Of a DNA stretch of 64,000 nucleotides, positions 40,524-62,229 are shown piece after piece. The position numbers and the translations under genes are program-made. The stretch lies in NCBI RefSeq assembly GCF_002127325.2, contig NC_035436.2, positions 24,083,112 to 24,147,111 on the forward strand, in the 5' to 3' direction. Source of the stretch: Helianthus annuus (Eukaryota; Streptophyta; Magnoliopsida; Asterales; Asteraceae). The notes under the pieces are model-generated. The model searched no databases, had not been told where the DNA came from, and saw only the letters and a list, made by a program, of their open reading frames with translations. Each line of letters begins with the position of its first letter. Positions within the stretch are counted from its first letter, which is position 1.

Positions 40524-42217
40524 TGATGCGTGTCAGTGTGTATATATTTTTGATGTATATTTAAGCCCTTTTTACACTTTTAGCCAAGTTTTAAATTTAT
40601 AAAACACGATATTCACTAACACTAAACACACATATGGGCAAGTGCACCCATCGTGGACGTAGTATAGTGTTGGTAAGATACCGAGGTCGTCCAAGGACAC
40701 AAGAGCTATTAATACCGGTTTATCCTCAACGTCTAATCAAATCAAAAAGGTTAGAAAAATGTTTTAAACTAAGAAAAATAAAAACTAACTAAATGCTGAA
40801 AAATAAAAATAAAATAAAAACAGATAGACAAGATGAATCACTTGGATCCGACACGTGTATTAGTATAACCTTTGATTATTTTCGCACTTTTGCACTTGTT
40901 TAAGAGATTATCTTAGTTATTGTAGTAGGCCCCTCTTTTGAAGGCGACGTTACCCTCAACCCAGTAGTTTGAGTCAGCAAGGATACAATCCTAAAGGGTC
41001 GGATTATTGAAAGATAATGAATTAAGTTATTAATGCAAATTATGGTAGGCCCCGCTTTTGGCGGTGACGTTACCCTCGGCTAAGTAGTCTGAGTCAGCAG
41101 GGATACAGTCCTAAATAGCCGGGTTATAGTATTAATAGTAGTTAACTTATGAGGGGGTCAAAGAGTTTGGATCCCCGCCATCCAATACCTATGGGCATTG
41201 AAGGAGATCCTACTAAATTTGACCCAGGTCCCAAGCAGGACCTCTAAACGCTGAACAAGGGCAAGACCCTTACCAAACCGTTCCCTTAACCCCCGACCAG
41301 GTAGCCAACATACCTCCATATAGACCGTGGAGATATGAATGGTGAAAATCTTTTATTTTATATAGACAGTAAAATATTGCCAAGACACCACGGACAAACG
41401 ATAAGGAAAGATCACCTTCAACATAAGTAACTAGTTATTAAAGTCATTAATACAAAACCAAATAAAAAGTGCAAAAGATTAAAAATAAAAAGTATTATAC
41501 TAAACACTTGTCTTCACCAAGTGATGTAAGAGACTTAGGCAAACATGGCCTTGATTGTCAAGAACTCTTACGATCAATCTTGGATCCCGAGACGACTCAC
41601 ACACTCTACGATGGACAATGGATGATGGTGGTGGATGGTGGTGTTATGGTGGTGATGGGTGGTGGATGAAGTGTGAGAGAGGTGGTGTGCCAAGGGATGA
41701 GAGAGAATGAAACCAAGCTCCTCTATTTATAGGCTGAACAGAACGCTGGACACGGCCCCGTGTCCGCTGGACACGGCCCCGTGCCCGTCTGACATTCTCT
41801 CTCTTCATTAATTGTAATTGCGAATTACAATTAATGCGCCTGCTGTACTTTCAACACGCCCCCGTGCCCGCTGGGCACGGCCCCGTGGTGAGCAATGGAA
41901 GCTTCTACTGGTTTGTCTTTTCTGCTGCTTCCTGGGCACGCCCCCGTGTTCACTGGACACGGGGCGTGTTCAGACTCTGTTCTCTTCTCTTTGTCTTGGG
42001 AGGTGCCGTTGAGGGTCCGGGCAGTTTACTTTTGTTCCTTTTCTTGTATTTATGGTAGAATTAGTGGTCTTTTTGCTTCTTTTGTGATTTTGAGCTCATT
42101 TCATCCTGAAAATACAAAAGGAAGACAAAAACACTCTTTTTCCAACATTAGTACTTAAAAAGGGTTAGTTTTATGCCTTAATTGATGTGTTTTATATGTT
42201 GCATTTTACACACATCA
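40524..42217 (-). repeat. 3' LTR of non-autonomous copy A
   Basis: 1694 bp. It carries three GC palindrome doublets (41751, 41855, 41937) and a 10 bp inverted repeat TAATTGTAATTGCGAATTAC at about 41810. The small open frames within it are not genes. Confidence 0.92.
41751..41968. repeat. three GC palindrome doublets in the LTR
   Basis: Core pairs start at 41751/41772, 41855/41876 and 41937/41958, each exactly 21 bp apart: CACGGCCCCGTG, CACGCCCCCGTG and CACGGGGCGTG variants. The identical set lies at 47329-47546 in the other LTR. Confidence 0.95.
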
Positions 42218-43601
42218 AATACCCCCACACTTGAACTTTTGCTTGTCCTCAAGCAAAACTCTTTTAATGTGGCTTACACTCCCAAATGGAATAGGTAGAA
42301 GAGAAGTTTTTTAACTTGTCCTAGAGTGTCGGGAATCCAAGGTTTGTATAGGTTCTATTTTTATTTTATTTACAATCTTATTCGTCATGGTTTATTTTGA
42401 ACTTTTCATAAGATAAACTACTTATTTGGGCATAGCATGCCTTATTAAAATTCCATTTATATACAAGTTCACATACCTCACGGGAGGTCACTCAATCACT
42501 CGGCCGAAGGTGTATATTTAAGTGAATCGCTCGAGAGCGGCACGGATTTACATTCTCCATATGCTTGCCAAGCGATCAATCCTCCTCCTTTTTAACTTTT
42601 TTCCTTTGTAAATATCAAGAGGTCTTTTGGGGTGAAGGCTTGGGTTTAAAGGTGGGTGGTTGGTTAGTGGTTAGTAAAAAGGGCGAAAATCGTAACAAGT
42701 GTCGGTTTTCGTGAAATACCTTATTTTTGGTGACATTTATTTTTGAAGTATTTCTCCAAACAAGCTTTTTGTAGCTTATGTTTGTTTTTGACTTCATCAT
42801 TTTTTTTTTTTTCACGTAAAGGGTATGTTTATGAAAAACCGAGTTTGTTACTAAAATAAAGGTGAAAAAAAATGAAAAAGGTTTTTGGTGGGTAAAAAAA
42901 AATTTTGTTTTGGGGGTAATGAAATGAAAGGTTTAGGCTTAAAGGGGGTTTTCTAGGGGGATTTTGGGTAGGTAAAAAAAAATGAAAAATAATGGTTTTG
43001 AAAGAAAAATAGTTAGTCCTAATGCCTCCATCATTTACTTACTTGGGTTTAAGTTGGTAAGGACCGGGAATGTATCGTCGTGGCAAGTTCTAGATTTGTA
43101 AAGACCGAGCGGCTATTCACACAAGAAACGAAAAATGAGCATTTAATCTAAATATGTGTATTTTTATGCTCAATAAAGGCTCAAAACTCACTTTTTGTGG
43201 GAATGGGTTTTTTTATGTGACCAAGCATATATAATCGAATTTTAGCTAGACTTGTTATACCGTTTCATAATTTTCTTATGTTAGTTCTTTTTATCACGAC
43301 GCTATCGGTTGTAAGTTTGTAAAAATATAACCCTTTTATAACTTGTTATTCCCAACTTAAACTAAGACAAGTAAATAAAAAAAAAATGAAAAAGTTTTTG
43401 AAAAAATTGGGGTGTTTAGCGGTTCCAATAGAGTTTTGTGTAAGGCTTGTTTTAGGATTTTGCAAAATTCCAAGGTTTTAGCATCCCCCCCACACTTAAA
43501 TTACACATTGTCCTCAATGTGTCCAAAAATAAAGTTTTTGGTTGATTAGAATATGTAAAAGTGTGTTTAAAAACAAAGATTTGTGTTACTGGCACTCTGG
43601 A

Positions 43602-43787
43602 CACGGCCCCGTGTTGACCGGGTACGGCCCCGTGGTCAAGTGCCAGTAACAAAAATTATAGAATTGAAACAGAAGCCTGGACACGGGGGCGTGTCCGCTG
43701 AACACGGCCCGTGTCCAGTTACCTGAACTGGGTGATTTCCTGCAGGGGGCTCAGCACGGGGCCGTGTTGGTTGGGCACGGCCCGTGT
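43602..43787. repeat. three internal GC palindrome doublets (3' cluster)
   Basis: Core starts are 43602/43623, 43682/43703 and 43755/43776. The first doublet is itself enclosed by an inverted repeat GTTACTGGCACT...AGTGCCAGTAAC (about 43583-43650). Confidence 0.93.
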
Positions 43788-44069
43788 GGAGCCTTCTGTT
43801 GTGGAGATTTTTGTCGGTTTGTTCTGTTCTTCTGCATGGTTTCATTTTTTCTCGTTCCCTTTTTCATCCATTACCACCATGAGTCCATAAATCATAAAAA
43901 CCATCATAACATTGCTAATAGAGAGATAATACATAAAAAGTTACATAGATAGTAAGCTTATGGAGTTCTAGCCCTATGTTTTATTTTAATTTTAGCAAAA
44001 TTTCCAAGAATCTACTGATCTTGGTTAGATAAGGCTTTGTAGAGCTCTACCTTTCGGATGCGTTTCTCC

Positions 44070-44513
44070 TCATATGTCGGCAAGCCACTCCTCTACCTCC
44101 CTTGGAAGGAGGAAGGAAGGCTCGTTTGCATTTGTTTGAGGAGTTTCAACTTCCGCCGGGACTTCTTGTGGGATTTCCATAGGAGGTTCCGCGGGGATGT
44201 CTCCCCACCCGGTAGGGTTGTTAATACCGAGTGCTAAGTTCCAGTCTTGTTGTGGAAGGACTGGTTCCATAGGAGGTGCCACCAAAATGTTTAACCTTTG
44301 GTGCAAAAGGTTAATCTCTTGGAAGCTGCTTTCCAATCCCATTGTAAGATCGTTGATACGGTCAATGAGGACCTCCTCTACGGACGTCATTTCGTCGAGA
44401 GCCTCTCTTAGTGCTATCACGTAGTGCACAAGTGTGGCTTCAACGGAGGGCCTCCTTCCCCTTCGGCTGTTTGAGGAATGAACGGATGATGTTTCGCTGT
44501 TTTCACTCGCCAT
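44070..44513 (-). CDS. unknown ORF2 of the non-autonomous element, copy A
   Basis: 147 residues, start MASENSETSSVHSSNSRRGR. A Ser-rich basic N-terminus is followed by a helical, Leu-rich segment (ALREALDEMTSVEEVLIDRI through SFQEINLLHQRLNILV, about 33-80) that looks like a coiled coil. A Pro/Glu-rich tail ends PREVEEWLADI. Copy B (60109-60573) is alignable end to end with conservative changes (for example ALREALDE against ALRESLDE), then extends seven residues. I recognise no domain. Because it lies between ORF1 and the 3' LTR in both copies, it may be a second gag-like or accessory product of the element, but that is inference. Confidence 0.6.
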   Translation of the reverse strand: MASENSETSSVHSSNSRRGRRPSVEATLVHYVIALREALDEMTSVEEVLIDRINDLTMGLESSFQEINLLHQRLNILVAPPMEPVLPQQDWNLALGINNPTGWGDIPAEPPMEIPQEVPAEVETPQTNANEPSFLLPREVEEWLADI

Positions 44514-44563
44514 TCTACGAAAAATAAACCAAAAATAGTTTATAAGACTAAACAGCTTCTGGA

Positions 44564-44596
44564 CACGGCCCCGTGCTCAATGAGCACGGCCCCGTG
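44564..44596. repeat. GC palindrome doublet just upstream of ORF2
   Basis: CACGGCCCCGTG at 44564 and 44585, 21 bp apart, about 50 bases before the ORF2 start on the leftward strand. Copy B has the equivalent at 60025/60046. Confidence 0.95.
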
Positions 44597-44867
44597 TTCA
44601 TCTTTCTGCAGAATTTTTGGAGCAAGGAATTTTGGTCTTCTAAGTTATTTTCTGAGTTTATGCAAGCTTTTTGACAGTAAATAACTCTAAACAATGTTAC
44701 ATAACATGTTTTTACCAAGATTCCATGACCAAAATTCCTTGTTTCCTACCATAAAGATTGAAAATTCAAATTTCTCATGGTGGTTTTTTGAAGAAAGATG
44801 AAGAAGAAGGAAATGTCTAGAAGAGGAAAGGACAAGATGGGTTGTTGGAAACTTCTTTTAGACTTAC

Positions 44868-45812
44868 TTAGGATTGTTTGAGAGAAGATTCCTTCAAATC
44901 CCTGCCCCCAAGTTGGTCCAAATGTGCAGGATTTTTGGCTGCATTTATAGAAAATGACAGCCCGCTGAACACGGCCCCGTGTCCGCTGGACACGGCCCCG
45001 TGTGCAGAGAAAATTCTGACACAGTTTGTCCGTATTCTGACGTCATGATCAGAAGGGAATCTTTTGATGGACACGGGGGCGTGTTGGCCGAGCACGGCCC
45101 CGTGTCGGAAAGCTGATTTATGAAGTTTTGTCTTTAAGGAGCTATTTTTTTTTTTTTTATCGGGTGGCTCCTGACTTGTTGGAACAACCCCAAAATGCCT
45201 AAGATACCTTAATTGTCCTATACTAAGGCGAGAACGCAAGAGGTTGTCGGTGAGGGTAATTCCTATTTTCATTCTAGGTGGACAAGTCCAACCCTTTCCC
45301 GGGCTCTCGTTAAAGAAGGTGTATGCCGAATCGCTCAGGTCTATGTATGCACCGAACGAGGTCGATGGGGAGTCCTTCACGGCACAATCGGCACAGGGAC
45401 GACTATCGTCCACGTCTTGTCTAGGAAGAAAGGTATTTTTGGGAGCAACGAGGTTGTCAGAATGCGGTTCCAACATTTCTTCATGGTCATCATCTTGGGA
45501 TGGATCTAAGAAATCCTTCCTAAGTTCTTTTGACCAATTTAGAAGTAGTTCTTCTAGTTGAAATAGCTCGTCAAGGAGCATATCTCCTAGAATATCCGGT
45601 TGGGCGCATTCGAGGGAGAAATAGTGTTTATTTTTACTTTCGCCCCTCTTAAGGTTACAAGGAATTGGTGGGTCTATATAGTGTGGCCTATAAGTGAGGA
45701 AGAAACATTTTAATTCCTCGTGTTCGCCTCCACATATTTGACACCACAAACCATAAGAGTGCCGAAAGTAAAAAGAATCACTATTACTCATGTTTGTATC
45801 AGAAGTTACCAA
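44868..45812 (-). CDS. unknown ORF1 of the non-autonomous element, zinc-knuckle-like, copy A
   Basis: 314-residue frame starting MVTSDTNMSNSDSFYFRHSY. A CX2CX3HX4C cluster (WCQICGGEHEELKC, C24, C27, H31, C36) resembles the zinc-binding site of Athila-type gag proteins. An acidic Leu-rich stretch LLDELFQLEELLLNWSKELR and SPSTSFGAYIDLSDSAYTFF follow. Copy B (58814-59734) matches closely and without gaps to about residue 218 (VVPTSQEPPD), so the real protein probably ends near there. Past that point the two copies diverge and the frame runs through GC palindromes read as HGAV. The role is unknown; a nucleic-acid-binding gag remnant is the likeliest guess. Confidence 0.6.
   Translation of the reverse strand: MVTSDTNMSNSDSFYFRHSYGLWCQICGGEHEELKCFFLTYRPHYIDPPIPCNLKRGESKNKHYFSLECAQPDILGDMLLDELFQLEELLLNWSKELRKDFLDPSQDDDHEEMLEPHSDNLVAPKNTFLPRQDVDDSRPCADCAVKDSPSTSFGAYIDLSDSAYTFFNESPGKGWTCPPRMKIGITLTDNLLRSRLSIGQLRYLRHFGVVPTSQEPPDKKKKNSSLKTKLHKSAFRHGAVLGQHAPVSIKRFPSDHDVRIRTNCVRIFSAHGAVSSGHGAVFSGLSFSINAAKNPAHLDQLGGRDLKESSLKQS
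44970..45104. repeat. two GC palindrome doublets at the ORF1 3' end
   Basis: Core starts 44970/44991 and 45072/45093. Copy B equivalents are 59627/59648 and 59525/59546. Confidence 0.95.
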
Positions 45813-45856
45813 CCGCCGGGATCAAACGGTTCTGTTTTCAGCAACTGAATCTTGGG

Positions 45857-45971
45857 CACGGGGGCGTGTTGAGTGGACACGGCCCCGTGTTCAGCCTACT
45901 GTCTGATATAAAACAGGATTGCCAGTTCCAATGATTGGGCACGGGGCGTGTTCAGCGGGCACGGCCCCGTG
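45857..45971. repeat. two GC palindrome doublets before ORF1
   Basis: Core starts 45857/45878 and 45940/45960 (the latter has an 11-base first core, so the spacing shrinks to 20 while the linker stays 9). Confidence 0.95.
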
Positions 45972-46077
45972 CTGAGCTCTGCAGAAGCTGAAAAATCTAA
46001 AAAAAAAATTCCTAAAAATTAAAAAAAATAAAAAGATGATTAGGCCGTTGATTCCTAACTTTCTTAAAATCCTTGTG

Positions 46078-46096
46078 TCCCCGGCAACGGCGCCAA
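46078..46096 (-). other. primer binding site of non-autonomous copy A
   Basis: The complement reads TGGCGCCGTTGCCGGGGA a few bases inside the 5' LTR, the Asp-tRNA-type primer site common in Athila-group elements. Confidence 0.8.
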
Positions 46097-46101
46097 AAAC
46101 T

Positions 46102-47795
46102 TGATGCGTGTCAGTGTGTATATATTTTTGATGTATATTTAAGCCCTTTTTACACTTTTAGCCAAGTTTTAAATTTATAAAACACGATATTCACTAACAC
46201 TAAACACACATATGGGCAAGTGCACCCATCGTGGACGTAGTATAGTGTTGGTAAGATACCGAGGTCGTCCAAGGACACAAGAGCTTTTAATACCGGTTTA
46301 TCCTCAACGTCTAATCAAATCAAAAAGGTTAGAAAAATGTTTTAAACTAAGAAAAATAAAAACTAACTAAATGCTGAAAAATAAAAATAAAATAAAAACA
46401 GATAGACAAGATGAATCACTTGGATCCGACACGTGTATTAGTATAACCTTTGATTATTTTCGCACTTTTGCACTTGTTTAAGAGATTATCTTAGTTATTG
46501 TAGTAGGCCCCTCTTTTGAAGGCGACGTTACCCTCAACCCAGTAGTTTGAGTCAGCAAGGATACAATCCTAAAGGGTCGGATTATTGAAAGATAATGAAT
46601 TAAGTTATTAATGCAAATTATGGTAGGCCCCGCTTTTGGCGGTGACGTTACCCTCGGCTAAGTAGTCTGAGTCAGCAGGGATACAGTCCTAAATAGCCGG
46701 GTTATAGTATTAATAGTAGTTAACTTATGAGGGGGTCAAAGAGTTTGGATCCCCGCCATCCAATACCTATGGGCATTGAAGGAGATCCTACTAAATTTGA
46801 CCCAGGTCCCAAGCAGGACCTCTAAACGCTGAACAAGGGCAAGACCCTTACCAAACCGTTCCCTTAACCCCCGACCAGGTAGCCAACATACCTCCATATA
46901 GACCGTGGAGATATGAATGGTGAAAATCTTTTATTTTATATAGACAGTAAAATAATGCCAAGACACCACGGACAAACGATAAGGAAAGATCACCTTCAAC
47001 ATAAGTAACTAGTTATTAAAGTCATTAATACAAAACCAAATAAAAAGTGCAAAAGATTAAAAATAAAAAGTATTATACTAAACACTTGTCTTCACCAAGT
47101 GATGTAAGAGACTTAGGCAAACATGGCCTTGATTGTCAAGAACTCTTACGATCAATCTTGGATCCCGAGACGACTCACACACTCTACGATGGACAATGGA
47201 TGATGGTGGTGGATGGTGGTGTTATGGTGGTGATGGGTGGTGGATGAAGTGTGAGAGAGGTGGTGTGCCAAGGGATGAGAGAGAATGAAACCAAGCTCCT
47301 CTATTTATAGGCTGAACAGAACGCTGGACACGGCCCCGTGTCCGCTGGACACGGCCCCGTGCCCGTCTGACATTCTCTCTCTTCATTAATTGTAATTGCG
47401 AATTACAATTAATGCGCCTGCTGTACTTTCAACACGCCCCCGTGCCCGCTGGGCACGGCCCCGTGGTGAGCAATGGAAGCTTCTACTGGTTTGTCTTTTC
47501 TGCTGCTTCCTGGGCACGCCCCCGTGTTCACTGGACACGGGGCGTGTTCAGACTCTGTTCTCTTCTCTTTGTCTTGGGAGGTGCCGTTGAGGGTCCGGGC
47601 AGTTTACTTTTGTTCCTTTTCTTGTATTTATGGTAGAATTAGTGGTCTTTTTGCTTCTTTTGTGATTTTGAGCTCATTTCATCCTGAAAATACAAAAGGA
47701 AGACAAAAACACTCTTTTTCCAACATTAGTACTTAAAAAGGGTTAGTTTTATGCCTTAATTGATGTGTTTTATATGTTGCATTTTACACACATCA
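46102..47795 (-). repeat. 5' LTR of non-autonomous copy A
   Basis: 1694 bp, same length as its partner and identical apart from two substitutions noticed (CTTTTAATA against CTATTAATA; AAATAATGCC against AAATATTGCC). Confidence 0.92.
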
Positions 47796-48778
47796 ACATG
47801 AAACATGCTCAAAAATGTGCCGGGTGTCGGTACGTTTGGCCGTACGGTCACGTTGTTCGACTAATTACGACGAAACCCGAACGGACGCGAAAAACGAACC
47901 AAATTACGCGACGAATGGAATTTATCAAGCCAAACACTAAAATAAAATATTTTAGTGGTTACGTAAATTTTTGAATGTCCGGATATATTCAGAACGTAAG
48001 ATATGCGCGAAAATGCAAACTTATGCACTTTTTGACGCTTTTAGTCCCTATTGATCAAATAAGTTTATTTTTGCGCACCAAACAACTCTAAGCCTATTTC
48101 TAAGCTATGTAAAGGATATTTAGGGCATGTTTAACTTATGATCATATTCCGGAAGGTTCGATACCATACGAATCGATAGACTTTTGCAGTTTGATGCAAT
48201 TAGTCCCTTTAATGCGCAAACTTGCGCATATCATCGTTTAATAGCATCGAAGCCTTATCTAATCCATATTAGGCATTCATGAGAGTATTATTAAACATCA
48301 CGATGCTTTGGGTTTGCTAAAAGGTCATTCAGATGTATAATTAAACACATTGACACTTTTAACCCCTTAAACTTGCGAAGTTGCTCGTAACTTCACTTAA
48401 AGGCATAAAAACCTTAGATGGCCATTAATTGGCATTCCCGAGAGTATAATCAAATATCATGAAGCTCCCGGTTTGTTAAAAGGTCACTCAGAGGTAAGAA
48501 TTAACATGTTGATGCTTTTAACCCTATATTGCGCAAACTTTCAATTAATTACGCAAACGGATACACTCGATCAACAAGTGGCTCATTTATGAATATAAAT
48601 ACCGTATGAGGTTATTCAGAAACTTCATTTAGGTATGTTGACACTTCCATTCCTTTCATAATCAAAGTTTTCAATTTTTTGAAAAATTAGTCCCTTAAAT
48701 TCAATGTTTGACTTTATTAGGGTTTATTACACATGTCAATACATCATTGGACGTGATTTTACGAGGTGTTACAGTGGG

Positions 48779-50330
48779 GTAAAGGTAATATATGAACATT
48801 GTTTTCTGAGATTCGATAGAGACGTAAGGGACAGATTGAAAGAAGACTCAATTCCCCTAGTTGGTTTCAAAAACAGCGTATCCCACCCTTTGGGAAAGAT
48901 TAGGCTCCCATTCACAGTCGGGGTAGGGGATCGTGTCCGAACCATAACCCTCTCCTTCACCGTGGTCCGAGCACACTCCAAAGACAATGCAATCCTAGGC
49001 AGGTCAAGGATTGGAGATTTACAAGCACAAGCCTCAACCCCTCATGGAGCTTTGGTGTTTCAAACACCCAAGGGCTTGGCCTGAGTGAAGTCCTCCTACG
49101 AAGTAATATCCTCAGTCTCGGAGGGAGAGGTGGCCGAGAAGTCCTAAAAAGAAGGAATCGAAGAATAGGCTCTTTGCGATAGGTTTTCGGAGCAGACAGT
49201 CAGGGTGGGCAGCCATCTCAGCGACAAATGCCAAAGTGCCCTCAAAGAATTTCTCCTCCTCAACATAGACGTCTTCGCGTTCCAACATAGAGACATGACC
49301 GGAATCCCGAGGAGTCTGACTGAACACAGGCTCAACACTTACACCTGGGTACAACCAGTAAAGCAAAAAAGACGAAGCATGGGCCCTAGCAAAAGAAGGG
49401 CTGCATGCGAAGAGACAAGAAAGCTGCTCAGGGCCGGGATAGTAAGAGAGGTAAAATATCCTTCCTGGATCGCCAACCCCGTCATGGTCAAAAATAAAGA
49501 CGGAGGGTGGAGAACGTGCATAGATTTTCAGGATCTAAATAAAAGCATGCCCCATGGACTGCTACCCTCTCCTAGAGATAGACATCCAGGTGGACTCCTT
49601 GTCTCAGTATCCTTTGAAGTGCTTCCTTGATGCGTACAAGAGGTACCACCAGATTTAAATGTCGCTGGAGGATGAAGAGAAAACTGCATTCATCACAGAC
49701 GAGGGAACCTTTTGCTACACCAAAATGCTCTTCGGGCTAAAATATGCAGGAGCCACATACCAGCGGTTCATGAACACCCTCTTTAGAGAACAGCGGGGAC
49801 GAAAGTTGGAAGTGTATGTCGATGACATTGTCATAAAAAGCCTTACTGAAATGGCCATAATAGAAGACATTACTGAAACCATACAAACCATGCAAGATGT
49901 GAACCTGAAGTTAAACCCGGGGAAATGTTGCTTCGGGGTAGAGGAAGGGAAATTCCTGGGGGTAGTAGTCACCAAGGGCGGGATCAAGGCCAACCCAGAG
50001 AAAACCCAGACAGTGGCTGAAATGCGATCTCCCAGGTCCATAAAAGATATTCAATAACTGAACGGGAGGCTGATAGCTCTTAATCGTTTCCTGTCTAAGG
50101 TAGCTAACAGGACTCTTCCCTTCATGAAAGTCCTGAAGGACTGTCTCCAGACAAACAAATTCAAGTGGACCCGAGAAGCTGAGGCAGACTTGCGAGAGAT
50201 GAAGGACTACATCTGCAAGCTCCCAACCTTGGCCACTCCGGTCCCCGGGGAAGATCTACTCTTATACTTATCCGCATCAAAGACAACGATCAGTGCAGTA
50301 ATGATGGTAGAAAGGGAGGAGATACGCTGT
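48779..50330 (+). pseudogene. protease C-terminus, reverse transcriptase and partial RNase H of the Retand-like element
   Basis: Resumes with VIYEHCF (protease) and IPLVGF...HPLGKIRLPFTVGVGD. RT follows from about 49205: RDMTGIPRSLTEHRLN, AGIVREVKYPSWIANPVMVK, GWRTCIDFQDLNK. A frameshift occurs near 49550 and another at about 49630. FCYTKMLFGLKYAGATYQRF and the intact active site VYVDDIVIKS (about 49819) come next. A TAA at 50055-50057 interrupts SIKDIQ/LNGRLIALNRF. RNase H starts (LYLSASKTTISAVMMVEREE) and then stops abruptly at about 50325. RNase H catalytic residues and integrase are missing. Confidence 0.85.
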
Positions 50331-52749: not shown

Positions 52750-52756
52750 ACTTCTC

Positions 52757-52990
52757 GGGATGACAGTCGAACTCGAAACCGATGGGTAAACCCGAAAGCC
52801 GACACATTTGGGACGGGTTTGGGGTCGATTAATTGGGTTTGGAACTAGTTTTTTTCATTGGTTTGGTACAGGTTTGGGATTTGGTGATGTACCCATTTAT
52901 CCAACCCGATTACCCGATAAAGTGTACACGTTTACCCGATTATATAACACATATAATTTCTTTTACATTTTTAAATATGTATATATATGA
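52757..52990. mobile_element. left part of a hAT-MITE-like element
   Basis: GGGATGACAGTCGAACTCGA and repeated GGGTTTGGG/ACCCGATTACCC text. The complementary end CCAATTACCATCCCT lies at 63712-63726 with matching CCCGTCCCAAACCCG text (63540-63726), so the two could be the ends of one element opened by later insertions. Confidence 0.4.
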
Positions 52991-54584
52991 CACATCCATT
53001 TTTTACATATAGGTATATGAAGAAACAATGGTTAAACAGAAGGTTAGTCCACGGGTTGAGTCTCGTTAGATAGGGTTAATCCCTTCTTTCCTCTGTAGGA
53101 TCGTGCCGTGACCCAAACGAGTCAATCAGAAGAGCTCTAATCCGTTTCAGAGGCAGAAACAGAGAAACGGACTTGTAAAACAACTGAAATCACTTTAAAT
53201 TGCCTTGTTTATTGATTTAACACAGGTTACAATCAAACGGCACGTCGACAGCACTTTGGTACCGGAATCACAGAATCTTACAACTGATTTCGCATGAACA
53301 CCTATATATAGTACTTCTAATTCCGCACGAACTGGTTCCAAACGGAATTAGTTTCATGCGAAACTTAATTCCTTACGGAATTACAAGTCAGCACATTTGA
53401 AGCGGAATTAGGCCTTCATGCGGAATTACATCAAAAACCTATTTCTCGAACTATGTGCCCTGATCTAACAATCTAAGTACCAGACTCGATACAAGACGAA
53501 GTCGACAGACGTATGCACTAACATCCTCGATCGATGGCTGGATTGTCTATAATCTGTCTCCTGCACAGTGAACACACCGTGACTCGCAACAAGGAGAATG
53601 GGGGTGGTGGTTGCTCCTTGTTACCACCCTCCGGCGTGAGAATATGTATTTGCTTTGGAAGCAAGATAAATGTTTAAGTAGTAAGTGAGAGTGAGCAGAT
53701 TAACATTACCTCAAACCTAGTTTGAAGTTGGTATTTATAGCCGAAGAGTGAAGGAGAGAGGTCAATGGGCAGAGGTCAATGGGTCGCTTGATGGGCCTTG
53801 GGCCTGACTGACAACTTGCAGCTTTTCCATAGGCCTAGCAGGAGCGTAGGCTGCAGAAGTGTCAGGCGCATGGTGGAGGTGTCACCACGTGTCCTTCTGT
53901 ATCAGTCGCACGAAGGAACGACCGCCAAGTGGCCTGCTGGGGTTGTGAGTCTGTTCATCAGCTTTATGCAAGTGGACTGGGTAGCCGCGTATTGGGTGGT
54001 CAGCTGACCGCTGTAGTCAGTGTCAAGGCATGTCGCTCATTGGTTGGCCACAAAAGTCAAAGTGACATTTCCACTTGCATTATTATAAAATGTTGCCCTT
54101 GCGTGTGCGCCCTGCGGGCTTGCGCAAGATTGTAACATGTGTTGGGTAAGTCGTACATGTATAGAACAACACATCTACACATTACTCTGCACTTCCTTTG
54201 CCGTCCCCGCGGTGTTGTAGTCTCGGAAGGTTGCATCACCCGATGTCAACCCCGTACGCACCCGCGCGGGTTTGTACATAGCAATGTGCGAAAAGTAGTA
54301 ACACGACAGTTATAGAAGATGTAGATTCAGATGATTGTAACAACTACCATCTTTAGCAACAATCACCGCATTCTGTGTATGCTGCCTAAAACGACCATTT
54401 TCAAACACAAGGTGAGAATCTCATACTTATTCGAGTGGGAAATCAAACCCGGTCCGCGCGCGCCCGCACGGACTGAGGCATGTTCTTTGTCGAGTGGAAA
54501 AGTAAACCGGGTGATAGTCACTTGCGCCTAAACCTGGTGCAAGATCTGGGACCATACCCCTTCAGTATATTATTCCATATCAAT
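52991..54584. other. unassigned repeat-like intergenic region
   Basis: 53040-53590 contains GGAATTA/ATGCGAAAC-type dispersed phrases and looks like a retrotransposon LTR fragment, but no ends could be found. 53591-54584 includes CCCGCGCGGG and GCGCGCGCCCGC text and no supported gene. Short open frames here look like chance. Confidence 0.35.
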
Positions 54585-55389
54585 CAGGGACGGATATAGA
54601 GTGTAACAAGGTGTCACACCCCAACTGATGGCGGAATCATCGGGGCGCGACACTAGGCGAATCAGATTGCTCAAGAGAATCCATAACAACTATCTTGTGA
54701 TAATATCTATTACATTCGTTATCCCATACTAACAAATAATACAATCACATAAGGTATCACATATTTCTTGTCCTCTCGAACAATACTAATCCGACAACCT
54801 AGGTTTTTAGGAGAGTTTCTAGACTTCCTAGCTTGATTTGATGTAGACAGCAACTAATCCTGCAACATACGTTAAAATAATGTCAATACGAAAATATTGG
54901 CGAGTATACAGGTTTGATATGTAATAGTACAATAAATAAAAGCTGCGAATTTCCACATACATAAACGTAATACACGACATATATACTCACAAAACTGATA
55001 CTACCAGCTAAGTCCTCGAGCTTCGATCGCGTTTGCTAAACTAGACCCCGTCGGGTGCAATAGTACTATACTAGTCATGGTGGGACGTCGCGAGTATAAG
55101 TCCTAGCACATATGTAACTAGCATCACGTATAACTATGCACATTGGTCATTCGCAAGTGATAAAATAGTTCAAGCACTTGATGTGGTTTGATTTGATAGC
55201 AACGTATGTTACACCCAAAAGTGCAAAAGCAAAAAGGGTTCAAGTATACTCACTGTGCGTATTTAGCGAGGTCACAGGTTGATTGGATCGGTCGAGAGTG
55301 CGTCTGAGTTAGCCTATACATAGAATGATATCGTAAGCGATGCACGGCGCGCTAAACGCGACGAGTCGAGTAGTCGGCTTTGTGGCAAT

Positions 55390-55680
55390 CCGATCGATCA
55401 TCAATCCGGTCGGATGGCTTAACCGGTCGGTCGAGCATACCTGGTCGGATGAGCTTACTGGGTCGGATGTCCATATCGGCTCGGAAGAGCTATCCGGTCG
55501 GATGAGCACATCTTGGTCGGATGTCTATGTCCGCTCGGATGAGTTATCCGGTCGGATGAGCACATCTGGTCGGATGAGCCATCCGGTCGAATAACCTGAT
55601 CCGGATGGATGTCCTATCCGGTCGGATAATCCTCACTCGGACGGATGACCTATCCGATCGGATGTCAGTAGTTTGTTCCA
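55390..55680. repeat. degenerate GGTCGGATGAGC minisatellite
   Basis: About 14-16 imperfect copies of roughly 17-20 bp, with GGTCGGATGAGC, GCTATCC and GTCCATATC variants. Several adjacent units are partly complementary (CGGATGG/CCATCCG). Confidence 0.8.
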
Positions 55681-56243
55681 ATGTCCTGATCAAACTAATG
55701 GTTTTTGGAAGGATTACAGGTTGTTTCACTGAGGTGGTGTGATAACGTGTTAAACGACTGAGATTTCATCATTTCCGACCCGTTCTAATGGCTGGGAACC
55801 ACCCCGTTCCATCAGATCTGGCCGTTTCTGACGGTTTTCCCATGTTTAACCCAAATCGCACGATTCTTTGACTAGATACATAGATTTTAGAGGAGATTGT
55901 TATAAAAACAGGGAAAATCACCCAGATCTGAGTTGTTTATGGTAAAATGAGATCACACCTTGAAGTTCATAAGAACTCTTGGTGATATCATCCTTGAACA
56001 CCTCAAATCAGTAGATTTCACGGTTATTAGTTGAGTTTTAAAAGATAGAATGGTGTAGAATTGAGTGTAGACCATAGAAGTACAAGTTTCTGTTTCAGAT
56101 CTTACCTGGATCGCGTGAAAATCGAGAGATTCGGGTCCAAGAGTGTGCTGGTCGAGTAGGAGCTGTCACCTCACTGTTTGAGTGATGTGACAGGCTATTT
56201 ATAGGCAAGAGGGAAGGGTAGAGGAGGTTTGGTGTGTTGGGTC

Positions 56244-56340
56244 AGATGGCTCATCCGTCCGGATGGCCCATCCATTCGGATGGCAATCCGTTCGGATAGC
56301 CTATCCGCCCGGATGGCCTATCCGTTCGGATAGCCATTCC
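56244..56340. repeat. 17 bp palindromic tandem array, left LTR copy
   Basis: Units start at 56244, 56261, 56278, 56294, 56311 and 56328. Core GGATGGCCCATCC with a self-complementary CCATCCGTTCGGATGG phase. Confidence 0.88.
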
Positions 56341-56833
56341 GGTTGGGTATTCGGTGCGGAGAAATTCACCGTTTTGAGCGTTGTGACAGTCTTGGGTACG
56401 CGTTTCCTATATTTAGTTATCATTATATATATATATATATATATATTTAATCACAAAGGGACGTACTTACGTATTCATATTCTAAAGTTGCGATACTTAC
56501 CCGGGTTTTTGCTTTGATTACGCAATTACTTGCGACGCTTCACGGTCATTGAGGAGGGTAGAGTAGGCCCTCACTCCATGACATCGTGAACGTTAATGTG
56601 TGATGCGATGTGTGTTGTTAGTAATGAGTTGCACTGCGACACATCACTGCTTATCAAGGAGGGTAGAACTGGTCCTCACTCGACATCTTCGTGGTTGTCA
56701 GCAAGTGCGATGTGATGTGATAGTGATAGAATATGTGATATTATGCAGACATATTGCGATATAGCGATGTATGCGATATAGGTACATTATGATCTGAATC
56801 TTTGGTGCTAGGCGTAACGAGTATAACGAGTAG

Positions 56834-58525
56834 TGATGTGTGTAAAATGCAACATATAAATTACATCAAATAAGGCATAAAACTAACCCTTTTTAAGTAC
56901 TAATGTTGGAAAAAGAGTGTTTTTGTCTTCCTTTTGTATTTTTAGGATTAAATGAGCTCAAATTCACAAAAGAAGCAAAAAGACAGCTAAATCTAACATA
57001 AATACAAGAAAAGGAATATAAGTGGATTGCCCGACCCCTCAACAGCATCCTCCCAAGCAAAATAGAGAAGGCAGAAGACTGAACACGCCCCGTGCTCAGC
57101 CAGCACGAGGCCGTGCCCAAGAAGCAGCAGAAAAGACAAACCTATAGAAGCTTCTACTGCCCATCACGGGGCCGTGTCCAGCGGACACGGGGGCGTGGCG
57201 AAAGTACAGCAGGCGCATTAATTGTAATTGCGAATTACAATTAATGAAGAGAGAGAGTGTCAGACAGGCACGGGGGCGTGTCCAGCGGACACGGGGCCAT
57301 GCCCAGCCTTCTGTTCAGCCTATAGATAGGAGTGCTTGGTTTCATTGCAACTCATCCCTTGGCACACCACCTCTCTCACACTTCATCCACCAACTACCAC
57401 CATCACAACACCATCATCCACCACCATCATCCATTGTCCATCATAGAGTGTGTGAGTCGTCTCGGGATCCAAGATTGATCGTAAGAGTTCTTGACAATCA
57501 AGGCCATGTCTGCCTAAGTCTCTTACATCACTTGGTGAAGACAAGTGTTTAGTTTAATACTTTTTATTTTCAATCTTTTGCACTTTTTATTTGGTTTTGT
57601 ATTAATGACTTTAATAACTAGTTGCTTATGTTGAAGGTGATCTTTCCTTATCGTTTGTCCGTGGTGTCTTGGCATTATTTTACTATCTATATAAAATAAA
57701 AGATTTTCACCATTCATATCTCCACGGTCTATATGGAGGTATGTTGGCTACCTGGTCGGGGGTTAAGGGAATGGTTTGGTAAGGGTCTTGCCCTTGTTCA
57801 GCGTTTAGAGGTCCTGGGAGGGACCTGGGTCAAATTTAGTAGGATCTCCTTCAATGCCCATAGGCATTGGATGGCGGGGATCCAAACTCTTTGACCCCCT
57901 CATAAGTTAACTACTATTAATACTATAACCCGGCTATTTGGGACTGTATCCCTGCTGACTCAGACTACTTAGTCGAGGGTAACGTCACCGCCAAAAGCGG
58001 GGCCTACCATAATTTGCATTAATAACTTAATTCATTATCTTCCAATAATCCAACCCTTTAGGATTGTATCCTTGCTGACTCAAACTACTGGGTTGAGGGT
58101 AACGTCGCCTTCAAAAGAGGGGCCTACTACAATAACTAAGATAATCTCTTAAATAAGTGCAAAAGTGCGAAAATAATCAAAGGTTATACTAATACACGAG
58201 TCGGATCCAAGTGATTCATCTTGTCTATCTGTTTTTATTTTATTTTATTTTCAGCATTTAGTTAGTTTTTATTTTTTAAGTTTAAAAATCTTTTCTAACT
58301 TTTTGATTTGATTAGACGTTGAGGATAAACCGGTACTAAAAGCTCTTGTGTCCTTGGACGACCTCGGTATCTTACCAACACTATACTACGTCCACGATGG
58401 GTGCACTTGCCCATATGTGTGTTTAGTGTTAGTAAATATCGTGTTTAATAAATTTAAAACTTGGCTAAAAGTGTAAAAAGGGCTTAAAATATACATAAAA
58501 AACATATATACACTAACACGCATCA
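56834..58525 (+). repeat. 5' LTR of non-autonomous copy B
   Basis: 1692 bp, collinear with the copy A LTRs read in reverse. Three GC palindrome doublets (starts 57084/57104, 57165/57186, 57269/57290) sit at the equivalent positions. Confidence 0.9.
57084..57301. repeat. three GC palindrome doublets in the copy B LTR
   Basis: CACGCCCCGTG/CACGAGGCCGTG, CACGGGGCCGTG/CACGGGGGCGTG and CACGGGGGCGTG/CACGGGGCCATG; the 9-base linker is kept in all three. Confidence 0.93.
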
Positions 58526-58531
58526 AGTTTT

Positions 58532-58549
58532 TGGCGCCGTTGCCGGGGA
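58532..58549 (+). other. primer binding site of non-autonomous copy B
   Basis: TGGCGCCGTTGCCGGGGA, six bases inside the LTR, identical to that of copy A. Confidence 0.85.
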
Positions 58550-58654
58550 CACAAGGATTTTAAGAAAGTTAGGAATCAACGGCCTAATCATCTTTTTATT
58601 TTTTCTTTTTAATTTTTAGGATTTTCTTAGTTTTTCAGCTTCTGCAGAGCTCAG

Positions 58655-58769
58655 CACGGGCCATGCCCGCTGAACACGCCCCCGTGCTCAATAATTGGAA
58701 CTGGCAATCCTGTTTTAAGTCAGACAGTAAGCTGAACACGGGGCCGTGCCCACTCAACACGCCCCCGTG
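58655..58769. repeat. two GC palindrome doublets before ORF1, copy B
   Basis: Starts 58655/58675 (11-base first core) and 58737/58758. Equivalent to 45960/45940 and 45878/45857 of copy A. Confidence 0.93.
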
Positions 58770-58813
58770 CCCAAGATTCACTTACTGAAAACAGAACCGT
58801 TAGATCCAGGCGG

Positions 58814-59734
58814 TTGGTAATTTCTGACATAAACATGAGTGATAGTAATTCTTTTTACTTTCGGCACTCTTATGGTACGTGGTGTCAATTATGTGGAGGC
58901 GAACATGAAGAAGTAAAATGTTACTTTCTAAATTATAGGCTCCACTACATAGACCCACCGATTCCTTATAACCTTAAGAGGGGCGAAAGTAAAAATAATC
59001 ACTATCTCTCCCTCGAATGCGCCCAGCCAGATATTCTAGGAGAAATGCTCCTTGACGAGTTATTTCAACTAGAAGAGCTAATTCTAAATTGGTCAAAAGA
59101 GCTTAGGAAGGATTTTATTGATCCACCCCAAGACGATGACCATGAAGAAATGTTGGGATTGCATTCCGACAACCTCGTTGCTCCCAAAAATACCTTCATA
59201 CCTAGCGATGACTTGGACGATAGTCGTCCCTGTGCCGATTGTGCCGTGAAGGACTCTCCATCGACTTCGTTCGGTGCATACATAGACCTGAGCGATTCGG
59301 CATACACCTTCTTTAACGAGAGCCCGGGAAAGGGTTGGACTTGTCCACCTAGAATGAAAATAGGAATTACCCTCACCGACAACCTCTTGCGTTCTCGCCT
59401 TAGTCTAGGACAATTAAGGTATCTTAGGCACTTTGGGGTTGTTCCAACCAGTCAAGAGCCACCCGATACTATTAAGTTCCTTAAAAAAAAATTTTTAGAC
59501 AAACTTCATAAAACAGTCTCTCGACACGGGGCCGTGTCCATCCAACACGTCCCCGCGCCCACCAAAAGATTCCCTTCTGATCCTTACGTCAGAATACGGA
59601 CAAACTGTGTCAGAATTCCATCTGCACACGGGGCCGTGCCCACTGAACACGGGGCCGTGTCCAGGATGCTGTCGTTTTCTATAAATGCAGCCAAGAATTC
59701 TGCACATTTAGACCAACTTGGGACAGAGATTTGA
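58814..59734 (+). CDS. unknown ORF1 of the non-autonomous element, copy B
   Basis: 306-residue frame, start MVISDINMSDSNSFYFRHSY. It keeps the CX2CX3HX4C cluster (WCQLCGGEHEEVKC) and the long identical block DSPSTSFGAYIDLSDSAYTF. Compared with copy A the first 218 or so residues align without gaps and most differences are conservative (L/I, E/D, V/I), which suggests past selection on the protein. Beyond VVPTSQEPPD the frames part, and the tail again translates GC palindromes (HGAV). Function unknown; gag-like nucleic-acid binding is a guess from the zinc-knuckle-like cluster. Confidence 0.6.
   Translation: MVISDINMSDSNSFYFRHSYGTWCQLCGGEHEEVKCYFLNYRLHYIDPPIPYNLKRGESKNNHYLSLECAQPDILGEMLLDELFQLEELILNWSKELRKDFIDPPQDDDHEEMLGLHSDNLVAPKNTFIPSDDLDDSRPCADCAVKDSPSTSFGAYIDLSDSAYTFFNESPGKGWTCPPRMKIGITLTDNLLRSRLSLGQLRYLRHFGVVPTSQEPPDTIKFLKKKFLDKLHKTVSRHGAVSIQHVPAPTKRFPSDPYVRIRTNCVRIPSAHGAVPTEHGAVSRMLSFSINAAKNSAHLDQLGTEI
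59525..59659. repeat. two GC palindrome doublets at the ORF1 3' end, copy B
   Basis: Starts 59525/59546 (second core altered to CACGTCCCCGCG) and 59627/59648. Confidence 0.93.
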
Positions 59735-60024
59735 AGGAATCTTCTCTCAACTATCCTAGGTAAGTTTTAAAAGAAGTTTCCAACAACCCATCTTGTCCTT
59801 TCCTCTTTTAACCATTTCCTTCTTCTTTATCTTTCTCCAAGAACCTCCATTAAAGTTTGAATTTTTCAAGCTTTGTGGTAGGGATTGATGAGTTTTGATC
59901 AGGGAATCTTAAATATGTTGTAAAACATTGTTTTAAGTTACTAATATTTAAAAAGACCCCACAAGTTCAGAAAATAACTTAAAACTTCAAGTTTCCCTGC
60001 TCCAAAACTCTGTAGAAAGATGAA

Positions 60025-60057
60025 CACGGGGCCGTGCTCATTGGGCACGGGGCCGTG
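60025..60057. repeat. GC palindrome doublet upstream of ORF2, copy B
   Basis: CACGGGGCCGTG at 60025 and 60046, 21 bp apart. Confidence 0.95.
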
Positions 60058-60108
60058 TCCGGTCTACTGTTTCAGCAAATAAACTATCTTTAGTTTGTTT
60101 TTCGTAGA

Positions 60109-60573
60109 ATGTCGAGTGAAAACAGCGAAACATCTTCCGTGCATTCATCAGACAACCGAAGAGGAAGGAGGCCCTCCATTGAAGCTACACTTGTGCATTA
60201 TGTAATAGCATTAAGGGAGTCCCTCGACGAAATGACGTCAGTAGAGGAGGTCTTAATCGACCGTATTAACGATCTTACGGTGGGACTCGATAGTAGCTTC
60301 CAAGAAATTAACCTCTTGCACCAGAGGTTAAATATTCTTGTGACACCCCCGATGGAACCGGTCCTCCCTCAACAGGATTGGAACCTGGCACTCGGAGTTA
60401 ACAACCCTACCGGGTGGGACGACTTTCAGGCGGAACCTCCCATGGAACACCAACAAGAGATCCCGGTGGAAATCGCAACCCCTCAAACTGACGCTAATGA
60501 GCCCTCTTTTCTCCTTCCAAGGGAGGTGGAGGAGTGGCTCGCCGACATATCAGGAAAACCACACCTGGAATAA
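60109..60573 (+). CDS. unknown ORF2 of the non-autonomous element, copy B
   Basis: 154 residues, start MSSENSETSSVHSSDNRRGR, ending WLADISGKPHLE. The same Ser-rich head, Leu-rich helical middle and acidic Pro-rich tail as copy A (44070-44513), with no indels until the final seven residues. Family unknown. Confidence 0.6.
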   Translation: MSSENSETSSVHSSDNRRGRRPSIEATLVHYVIALRESLDEMTSVEEVLIDRINDLTVGLDSSFQEINLLHQRLNILVTPPMEPVLPQQDWNLALGVNNPTGWDDFQAEPPMEHQQEIPVEIATPQTDANEPSFLLPREVEEWLADISGKPHLE

Positions 60574-60880
60574 GGAGTTCTATAAGGCCATATCTAACCA
60601 AGACTACTAGCTTCTTGGAAATTTTGCTAATTAAAATAATGTGTAGGCTAGAACTCCAGGGTTTACTGCTTCTTTGTTTTCTTATCTAGCTTAATATAAA
60701 TTTAGGACTATGTAAGATCTCTCTATGATTTCAATGAAATGATGGTTTTAAACTTTGGATGATCCATAATAAATAAAACACACTCATGGTGGTAAAGGAT
60801 GAAAAGGGAAACGAGAAACATGACCCCATGCACAAGAACAAGGCAACCCGACATCAATTTCTCCAACACAGAAGGTTCAA

Positions 60881-61044
60881 CACGGGTCGTGTCCAACCAA
60901 CACGGCCCCGTGCTGAACCCCCTGCAGAAAAATGCCCAGTTCAGGTAACTGGACACGGGCCGTGTTCACCAGACACGCCCCCGTGTCCAGGCTTCTGTTT
61001 CTTTTCTTTAATTTTCGTTACTGGCACCTGAACACAGGGCCGTG
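60881..61044. repeat. 3' cluster of GC palindromes, copy B
   Basis: Doublets at 60881/60901 and 60954/60974 (11-base first cores, 9-base linkers). At 61033 there is a single CACAGGGCCGTG where copy A has a doublet; it is still enclosed by TTACTGGCA...TGCCAGTAA. Confidence 0.9.
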
Positions 61045-62229
61045 TCCAGACTGCCAGTAACATAAAATCTTTGCTTTTAACACTATATTACACATCTAAT
61101 CAACCTAAAAATTTATTTTTGGCACACAAAACTCTATTGGAACCGCTGATCACCCCAAATTTTTTTCAAAAATTTCAATTTTTTTTACTTGTCTAAAGTT
61201 TAAGTTGGGAATTCTAAGATTAATAAGGTTATATTTTTACAAATTTACAACCAATAGCGTCGTGATAAAAAGAACCAACATAAGAAAATTATGAAACGGG
61301 CATAACAAGCTTAGTTAAAATTTGATTATATATACTTGTTCACATAGAAAAACCCATTCCCACAAAAAGTGAGTTTTGAGCCTTTATTGAGCATACAAAT
61401 ATACATCTTTAGACTAAATGCTCATTTTTCGTTTCTTGTGTGAATAGCCGCTTGGTTCTTACGACTCTAGAACTTGCCACGACGATTCATTCCCAGTCCT
61501 TACCAACTTAAACCCAAGTAAGTAAATGATGGAGGCATTAGGACTAACCCTTTTTTCTTTCTACACCATTATTTTTCAATTTTTTTTTACCACCTACCCA
61601 AAATCCTCCTAGTTAACCCCTTTGAGCCTAAACCTTTCATTTCTTTACCCTAAAACCTTTTTACCCACCAAAAACTTTTTTATTTTTACCCTTTATTTTA
61701 GTAACAAGCTCGGTTTTCGTGTGACTAAAAAAAATAATAATAATAATCATAATAATAATAATGAAGTTTGAAATAAACAAACAAAGCTCTTAAAACAAAA
61801 GCTTGTTTGAAGAAATACTTCGAAATAAAAAGTCACTAAAACAAAATGTTTTACGAGAACCGACGCTTTTTACGCTTTTCGCCCTTTTCTACTAACCACT
61901 AACCCATTCATCCACCTTTAGCCCAAGCCTTTACCCAAAAAAGTCCTCTTGATATTTACAAAGGTAACAAGTTAAAAAGGAGGAGGATTGATTGCTTGGC
62001 AATCTTATGGTAGGAATAAGTTCCATGCCGCTCTCGAGTGATTCACTAAAAATACACCTTCGGCCGAGTGTGAGTGATTTCTCCCGTGAGGTATGTGAAC
62101 TTGTATATAAATGGAATTTTAAAAAAGGCATGTTATGCCCAATTAAGTAATTTCTCATATGAAACGTTCTAAACAAATCATAACGAGTAGGATTGTAAAT
62201 AGATAAAAATAAAACCCAAAAAGATCTTG
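61045..62229. other. 3' non-coding interior of copy B
   Basis: Collinear with 42340-43560 of copy A (reverse). Contains an ATA/AAT microsatellite (about 61728-61760) and T-rich runs. No gene. Confidence 0.6.

What the first reader, a model, noticed from the sequence alone, without database searches (positions are those of the whole stretch)
40524..62229. GC-rich palindrome doublets with a fixed 9-base linker across a non-autonomous LTR element family
Both copies are dotted with pairs of 11-12 base palindromic cores (CACGGCCCCGTG, CACGGGGCCGTG, CACGCCCCCGTG, CACGGGGCGTG). In every doublet found the linker is exactly 9 bases; with a 12-base first core the starts are exactly 21 apart, two helical turns. 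I find 14 doublets in copy A (6 in LTRs, 8 internal) and 10 in copy B, plus one half-site. The 11 positions of copy B correspond one-to-one to those of copy A. Linker sequence varies (TCCGCTGGA, TTGACCGGG, CTCAATGAG, TTCAGCGGG) while its length does not. Fixed phasing with free linker sequence suggests a binding array for a dimeric or tetrameric protein, or a DNA/RNA structure used in packaging or silencing. The binding role is inference; the spacing is read directly.
Basis: partly seen in the sequence, partly recalled or inferred. Interest (0 to 1): 0.88.

Follow-up and report, generated by a model that had tools for sequence, protein, structure and literature searches.

The report
Paired palindrome promoter motif in retrotransposons
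Many copies of a sunflower-type retrotransposon carry the same paired GC-rich palindrome, nearly always with a nine-base gap and, in the long terminal repeat, a fixed distance in front of a TATA box, which looks like a landing site the element uses to switch itself on.

Summary
The assembly has 58,127 strict doublets with a 9-nt linker, against 125 with 0-8 nt and 1,046 with 10-29 nt. In 20 loci on one chromosome all strict cores lie in one LTR family. It has non-autonomous (copies A, B) and ~12-kb autonomous members with RT, RNase H, integrase and a PF03078 ATHILA ORF. About 20 flank-defined sites share one oriented 43-bp motif; the linker is not free but reads YYCRNYSAA. Between lineages cores changed in 33/423 positions, linkers in 44/173. 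TATAWW within 80 nt downstream occurs only at +20 to +22 (33 of 33): in 23/23 doublets of the LTR site, but only 10/25 at three internal sites. Of the first 100 listed genome-wide core-to-TATAAA matches, 94 have 19-20 nt. I read the doublets as DNA-level promoter motifs, in layout like the palindromic repeated motifs of Sireviruses. An antisense-strand hairpin has weak support. The binding protein is unknown. New variant of a known kind, in another superfamily.

The parts
40524..42217 (-). copy A 3' LTR, three doublets in U3
   Evidence: 99.9% to the other LTR
46102..47795 (-). copy A 5' LTR, three doublets in U3
46078..46095 (-). copy A primer binding site (TGGCGCCGTTGCCGGGGA on the element strand); match to the tRNA-Asp 3' end is recalled
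41751..41783 (-). doublet LTR1 (TATA-proximal), 3' LTR
41855..41887 (-). doublet LTR2, 3' LTR
41937..41968 (-). doublet LTR3, 3' LTR (one 11-nt core)
43602..43634 (-). doublet S5, one core degenerate
43682..43713 (-). doublet S3, TATAAT at +22 in this copy
43755..43786 (-). doublet S4
44564..44596 (-). doublet S8, TATAAA at +20 in this copy, upstream of ORF2 ATG
44970..45002 (-). doublet S6, TATAAA at +21
45072..45104 (-). doublet S16
45857..45889 (-). doublet S7, upstream of ORF1
45940..45971 (-). doublet S12
47329..47361 (-). doublet LTR1, 5' LTR
47433..47465 (-). doublet LTR2, 5' LTR
47515..47546 (-). doublet LTR3, 5' LTR
47300..47309 (-). TATA box TATAAATAGA of the 5' LTR, at +20 from doublet LTR1 (same at 41722-41731 in the 3' LTR)
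44940..44949 (-). internal TATA box TATAAATGCA downstream of S6
44058..44513 (-). ORF2 of copy A (element-encoded protein of about 150 aa)
44871..45791 (-). ORF1 of copy A (CxxCGGxH motif near the start), stop codon not included
56834..58525 (+). copy B 5' LTR
58532..58549 (+). copy B primer binding site
57084..57115 (+). B doublet at the LTR3 position, second core degenerate
57165..57197 (+). B doublet LTR2
57269..57301 (+). B doublet at the LTR1 position, second core degenerate
58655..58686 (+). B doublet at the S12 position, first core degenerate
58737..58769 (+). B doublet S7
59525..59557 (+). B doublet at the S16 position, second core degenerate
59627..59659 (+). B doublet S6, TATAAA at +21
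60025..60057 (+). B doublet S8, no TATAWW downstream
60881..60912 (+). B doublet at the S4 position, first core degenerate
60954..60985 (+). B doublet S3, no TATAWW downstream
61033..61044 (+). B half-site CACAGGGCCGTG (position of A's S5)
58835..59734 (+). ORF1 of copy B
60109..60573 (+). ORF2 of copy B, 154 aa

Best explanation
The doublets are DNA-level cis-regulatory sites of one Athila-type (Ty3/gypsy) retrotransposon family in a sunflower-type genome. Each is an oriented 43-bp unit, CTGAA-CACGGGGCCGTG-YYCRNYSAA-CACGSSSSCGTG-YCCAG: two near-palindromic boxes, two helical turns apart when both are 12 nt. Inferred: a DNA-binding protein, probably dimeric, host or element-encoded, occupies both boxes on one face of the helix. 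In U3 it recruits transcription to a TATA box about 20 bp downstream and so drives the genomic RNA; inside some copies it may drive separate mRNAs for the ORFs. Shown: the motif, its spacing, its confinement to the family in the sample, core conservation against linker divergence, and the TATA distance in the LTR. Not shown: binding, transcription, and the protein.
For: Gap 9 in 98.0% of 59,298 strict pairs with gap 0-29. About 20 flank-defined sites share the motif and little else. Six LTR pairs between lineages: cores 33/423 changed, linkers 44/173 (p 3e-8, recomputed; one search used a wrong table), core CpG 12/145 against other CpG 81/459 (p 0.005). TATAWW within 80 nt downstream of 150 doublets: 33 matches, all at +20 to +22; the opposite side and strand has 2. 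By site: LTR1 23/23, S6 5/9, S3 3/11, S8 2/5, the other 16 sites 0/102. Genome-wide 24,639 core-to-TATAAA matches at 5-35 nt (12,279 + 12,360), control 8; 94 of the first 100 listed, all on contig C1, have 19-20 nt. No strict core lies in the gag-pol reading frames of L019, L035 or the part of L021 held; those in the ORF3 open frame of L035 and L021 precede the ATG that follows a CTTTCAG splice-acceptor-like sequence, though an earlier in-frame ATG precedes the doublet. Sireviruses have a similar layout (PMC2829016, sections 9 and 19 and passages). A second LTR family in the window has other palindromes, 16-17 bp apart, about 50 bp upstream of its own TATA box (distance read by eye).
Against: No binding or transcript data. 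Comparing post-insertion with between-lineage changes does not show selection (p 0.76), and post-insertion CpG transitions in cores are like those outside (7/230 against 22/823). All sites point the same way along the element, which a dimer on a palindrome need not require. The boxes are not exact palindromes: the symmetric CACGGGCCCGTG is 602 of 209,322, though two other rare variants are as rare in my sample (1 each of 308). The four TATA-linked sites may descend from one ancestral promoter.
Confidence: 0.57

Rival explanations
1. The doublet is one hairpin, core 1 pairing with core 2 over a 3-bp + 3-nt + 3-bp linker. It acts as nucleic-acid structure (antisense RNA, cDNA or cruciform), for example as a source of small RNAs or a structural signal; the 9-nt linker is fixed because it is loop plus closing pairs.
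For: Antisense strand folds better than sense at 14 of 19 sites (mean -28.3 against -24.1 kcal/mol, p 0.005). Site-level permutation: pairs allowed on the antisense strand 127.8 of 160 against 117.9 permuted, mean p 0.025, while the two within-core palindromes show no signal. Linker-internal Watson-Crick pairs 33 against 27.7 permuted, p 0.024; among 85 unique forms the -2/+2 flank pair is associated as pairing predicts (p 0.0015, relatedness not removed). Two doublets folded as single-stranded DNA, both strands, z -3.9 to -5.5. Palindrome clusters in maize Sirevirus LTRs attract small RNAs (PMC10760457 passages).
Against: Weak p values without correction for the several tests run; Watson-Crick pairs alone p 0.095 and linker pairs p 0.11-0.21 in the 20-site version. 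The commonest combination (GGGGCC twice) leaves two mismatches. An oriented DNA motif with fixed AA and variable YY gives the same asymmetry. In degenerate cores G-T and A-C mismatches are even, 13 and 11. No reason for the TATA distance.
Confidence: 0.22
2. The doublets are a neutral micro-repeat spread within the family by tandem duplication and template switching, kept alike by descent; the fixed linker is the fixed unit length of a 21-bp repeat.
For: 21-bp units do expand and contract: a five-unit array in L019, single units in L028. All sites share orientation. No proof of selection from the within/between comparison. Mobile double-hairpin repeats exist in mitochondria (search listing only).
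Against: Cores stay while linkers diverge; in the sample only 7 of 362 strict cores have no partner and only one array exceeds two units; no signal of linkers being exchanged between sites of an element (similarity p 0.07, identity p 0.54); the TATA distance; no doublet in gag-pol frames.
Confidence: 0.16

Closest known systems
Palindromic repeated motifs (RM) of Sireviruses (Ty1/copia), PMC2829016
   Same: High-copy palindromes, nearly all with a CGG-CCG core, in noncoding parts: clustered in the LTR upstream of a conserved TATA box and again upstream of the env-like gene
   Different: Host element here is Athila-type Ty3/gypsy; boxes come as doublets with a 9-nt linker; also between PBS and the first ORF and before the 3' LTR. 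What I read gives no fixed pair spacing and calls the RM absent from the classic retrotransposons compared
VANC target arrays of VANDAL transposons (Arabidopsis), PMC5735166 (passages)
   Same: Family-specific short motif at high density in noncoding regions of one transposon family, varying by tandem-repeat gain and loss
   Different: There a DNA transposon encodes the binding, anti-silencing protein; here no binding protein is known and the motif is a phased palindrome pair
Heat-shock-element or BII-type LTR enhancers (ONSEN, Tnt1); from memory
   Same: Short repeated promoter sites in U3 of plant retrotransposons
   Different: Different sequences, few copies, no internal arrays recalled
Double-hairpin elements of fungal and algal organelles; search listing only
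   Same: Two short hairpins in tandem
   Different: Organellar and mobile; here nuclear, at fixed sites of an LTR element

Membership tests
Athila lineage of Ty3/gypsy | RT, RNase H, then integrase (gypsy order) in the autonomous member | tested here: met
   L019: RVT_1 and RT_RNaseH in one frame, Integrase_H2C2 and rve in the next
Athila lineage of Ty3/gypsy | ATHILA ORF-1 domain (PF03078), found in 16% of Athila elements in PMC6317226 (passage) | tested here: met
   L035 ORF3, E 2e-5, 24.0 bits against cut-off 20.2
Athila lineage of Ty3/gypsy | Placement in the RT tree | not tested
   no tree built
Sirevirus RM arrays | Palindrome with CGG-CCG core | tested here: inconclusive
   194 of 300 cores have it (CACGGGGCCGTG, CACGGGCCGTG, CACGGCCCCGTG, CACGGCGCCGTG); the 5/1 and 1/4 types, 106 of 300, do not
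Sirevirus RM arrays | At least eight copies, in the LTR upstream of TATA and upstream of the env-like ORF | tested here: met
Sirevirus RM arrays | Arrays define predicted CpG islands | not tested
   no CpG-island prediction run
Sirevirus RM arrays | Element belongs to Ty1/copia Sireviruses | tested here: not met
   gypsy domain order and PF03078; so it may work like an RM array but is not one of that set
VANC-type anti-silencing system | Element-encoded protein that binds the motif | not testable with these tools
   ORF2 is conserved but the model shows one long helix, low pTM, no known domain
VANC-type anti-silencing system | Loss of methylation over the motifs | not testable with these tools
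   no methylation data; PMC12844716 reports an Athila clade of sunflower with methylation drops in LTRs, not tied to this family

The most novel reading that the evidence does not exclude
An LTR-retrotransposon counterpart of the VANC system: a factor encoded by the family (ORF2, ORF3 or ORF1 product) binds the phased doublets of autonomous and non-autonomous members alike, switches on LTR and internal promoters and keeps the LTRs open against silencing. This would account for the low-methylation Athila clade of sunflower.
Probability: 0.13. Interest if true: 0.85.

Novelty: new variant of a known kind. Interest (0 to 1): 0.6.

Why it matters
A 43-bp motif present tens of thousands of times with one fixed geometry is a ready-made handle on how a very abundant plant retrotransposon family is switched on. 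It links three lines that are usually apart: palindromic LTR motifs of Sireviruses, family-specific anti-silencing arrays, and the unexplained methylation differences among sunflower Athila elements. The spacing rule gives sharp, cheap tests (linker 8, 9, 10, 14).

Tried and rejected
Sense-RNA hairpins for packaging: no G-U excess in degenerate cores, sense folds worse, within-core pairing shows no covariation. Protection of core CpGs from deamination after insertion: none seen in 11 LTR pairs; a between/within test was not significant. Exchange of linkers between sites: not supported. Known RNA families: none in the window at gathering scores. Motif strings in papers: two papers, from listing and abstract on unrelated subjects. 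Viral contigs: one match with CACGGCGCCGTG boxes 9 nt apart; I read 351 bases and did not follow it. ORF2 as a known domain: no Pfam family for copy B at E 10; three divergent copies gave only a coiled-coil hit below its cut-off. Fold search of ORF2 was not run: pTM 0.34, one long helix. Genome counts of the CACGCGGCCGTG control and of the second family's motif did not complete.

Choices that limit the counts: loci surround the first listed doublets on contig C1, not a random sample and not every listed doublet (2506466, 9108059 and 9109617 were not covered); L019/L020 adjoin, and L022/L023 look like copies of one another. In one search orientation came from matches to copy A or to L019 itself, so L019's own cores match by construction. 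The 19 site representatives were picked by hand, leaving out the L019 five-unit array and one single-copy site. Between-lineage pairs used 12 of 16 LTRs. Paired-LTR figures depend on how cores are defined: core CpG changes 7/230, 3/228 (10 of the 11 pairs). In one search copy A's U3 is counted three times. The core-linker p came from a wrong table and was recomputed.
Full report
WHAT WAS CHECKED. A Markov null expects none, and no strict core lies elsewhere in the window. The window lies in a 3.01-Gb assembly. ORF2 relatives that carry names are all Helianthus annuus or H. anomalus, so I take the genome for sunflower or a near relative; this is inference.

GENOME-WIDE SPACING. With 12-mer cores CACGSSSSCGTG there are 209,322 cores against 393 for the reversed pattern. 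Pairs: gap 9, 58,127; gap 0-8, 125; gap 10-29, 1,046. Of the 50 places listed for the last, 28 share one 10-nt linker type (TTGACCTGGA, CTGACCTGGA and near variants), so 9 is the rule with some inherited exceptions. In 20 fetched loci plus the window, 150 of 153 close neighbours have gap 9, and 7 of 362 strict cores have no partner even with decay allowed.

THE HOST ELEMENT. All 20 loci carry the LTR of copy A, and all 362 strict cores lie within 300 nt of a match to copy A or to L019. Copy A reads on the minus strand: 5' LTR 46102-47795, PBS 46078-46095, 3' LTR 40524-42217. Copy B reads on the plus strand; no 3' LTR of its own was found. L019/L020, L021 and L035 hold members with pol genes; RT, RNase H and integrase were shown in L019, and ORF3 of L035 passes the PF03078 ATHILA cut-off: the likely autonomous partner. 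The PBS match to tRNA-Asp is recalled.

THE MOTIF. Doublets fall into 20 clusters by flank similarity. They share an oriented motif, CTGAA-CACGGGGCCGTG-YYCRNYSAA-CACGSSSSCGTG-YCCAG, with a weak CTGTT at +10 and little beyond. Cores fall into a few types: runs of G then C, 4/2 or 5/1, or 11-nt forms; the exact palindrome CACGGGCCCGTG is 602 of 209,322. Spacing between neighbouring doublets varies; spacing inside a doublet hardly does.

CONSTRAINT. In an alignment of 25 U3 rows (copy A's three times), core CpG columns have mean pairwise identity 0.94, the 12 other CpG columns 0.74, linkers 0.80-0.85, other columns 0.91. Six pairs of LTRs from different lineages give cores 33/423 changed, linkers 44/173, other CpG 81/459, other sites 530/8875 (p values). 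Against this, changes between the two LTRs of one insertion are no rarer in cores by one definition, and the within/between comparison is not significant. So cores are kept while linkers change, but selection is not proven.

PROMOTER GEOMETRY. TATA[AT][AT] within 80 nt downstream of 150 doublets occurs 33 times, always at +20 to +22; the opposite side and strand gives 2. By site it is in 23/23 doublets of the TATA-proximal LTR site, 5/9 of S6, 3/11 of S3, 2/5 of S8 and 0/102 elsewhere. In the four S6 copies without it the same place reads CTTTAAAT, and these are the four elements with the second ORF2 type. Genome-wide 24,639 cores are followed by TATAAA within 5-35 nt, control 8; of the first 100 listed, 94 have 19-20 nt. 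The LTR geometry is therefore firm; internal promoters are plausible in some copies only. In copy B, S6 and its TATA box precede a good splice donor (CCTAG|GTAAGT) and an acceptor just before the ORF2 start, read by eye.

ORF2. Of 36 pairwise comparisons 9 had saturated dS; 26 of the other 27 give dN/dS 0.04-0.26 and one, between close copies, 0.61. There are two types about 50% identical, although the LTRs of the carriers are 94-98% identical to copy A's. Its model is a long helix with a disordered basic start and a short helix at the acidic end. A role as activator is a guess.

STRUCTURE RIVAL. The doublet can fold into one hairpin with core 1 on core 2. The antisense strand folds better, and site-level permutation gives mean p 0.025 for that pairing and none for the palindromes within cores. 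With several tests run this is weak, and an oriented DNA motif predicts the same asymmetry.

KNOWN KINDS. PMC2829016 (sections 9 and 19 and passages read) describes palindromic repeated motifs, nearly all with a CGG-CCG core, in Sireviruses, 8-32 copies, upstream of TATA and of the env-like gene. The layout here is similar in a Ty3/gypsy element, with the added rule of doublets. PMC10760457 (passages) reports small RNAs over maize Sirevirus palindromes, citing Bousios 2016, which is not held. PMC5735166 (passages) describes VANC motifs. PMC12844716 (sections 2.2 and 2.4 and part 1 of the discussion) reports an Athila clade of sunflower with methylation drops in LTRs and the highest GC content; it names no motif in what I read. 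PMC6317226 and PMC9784723 were seen in passages only. The listings showed me no report of this motif; only searched its letters, and the library holds open-licence papers only.

VERDICT. Real, very abundant, family-confined in the sample, and best read as a phased promoter motif; the protein is unknown. New variant of a known kind.

Noticed in passing
window 56252-56332 and 62722-62786, minus strand: A second LTR family has YATCCGNNCGGATR palindromes (one substitution allowed) spaced 16-17 bp start to start, about 50 bp upstream of its own TATA-type box: the same layout with another sequence and spacing. Looser, irregular copies lie at 55403-55664.
   Followed up: partly
window 55740-63290: Copy B sits between two copies of that second family's LTR and shows no 3' LTR of its own, as if recombination or a deletion fused two elements.
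   Followed up: no
window 60109-60573 and 44058-44513: ORF2 of the non-autonomous element is under purifying selection with synonymous divergence far above that of ORF1; named relatives only in Helianthus. Eight of its 37 relatives come from ENA records on short contigs (581-1325 nt), perhaps transcripts.
   Followed up: partly
L018, L025, L027, L028 (site S6): The four elements with the second ORF2 type have TTTAAAT where the others have TATAAAT downstream of S6.
   Followed up: no
window 43588-43650 and 61015-61065: Site S5 is nested in a larger inverted repeat (GTTACTGGCACT / AGTGCCAGTAAC); copy B keeps the outer arms with a single core.
   Followed up: no
window 41800-41840 and 47378-47418: A near-palindrome of about 31 bp (CATTAATTGTAATTGCGAATTACAATTAATG) lies between LTR doublets 1 and 2.
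   Followed up: no
L019:7401-7495: A run of five 21-bp units downstream of pol shows that the unit can expand.
   Followed up: no
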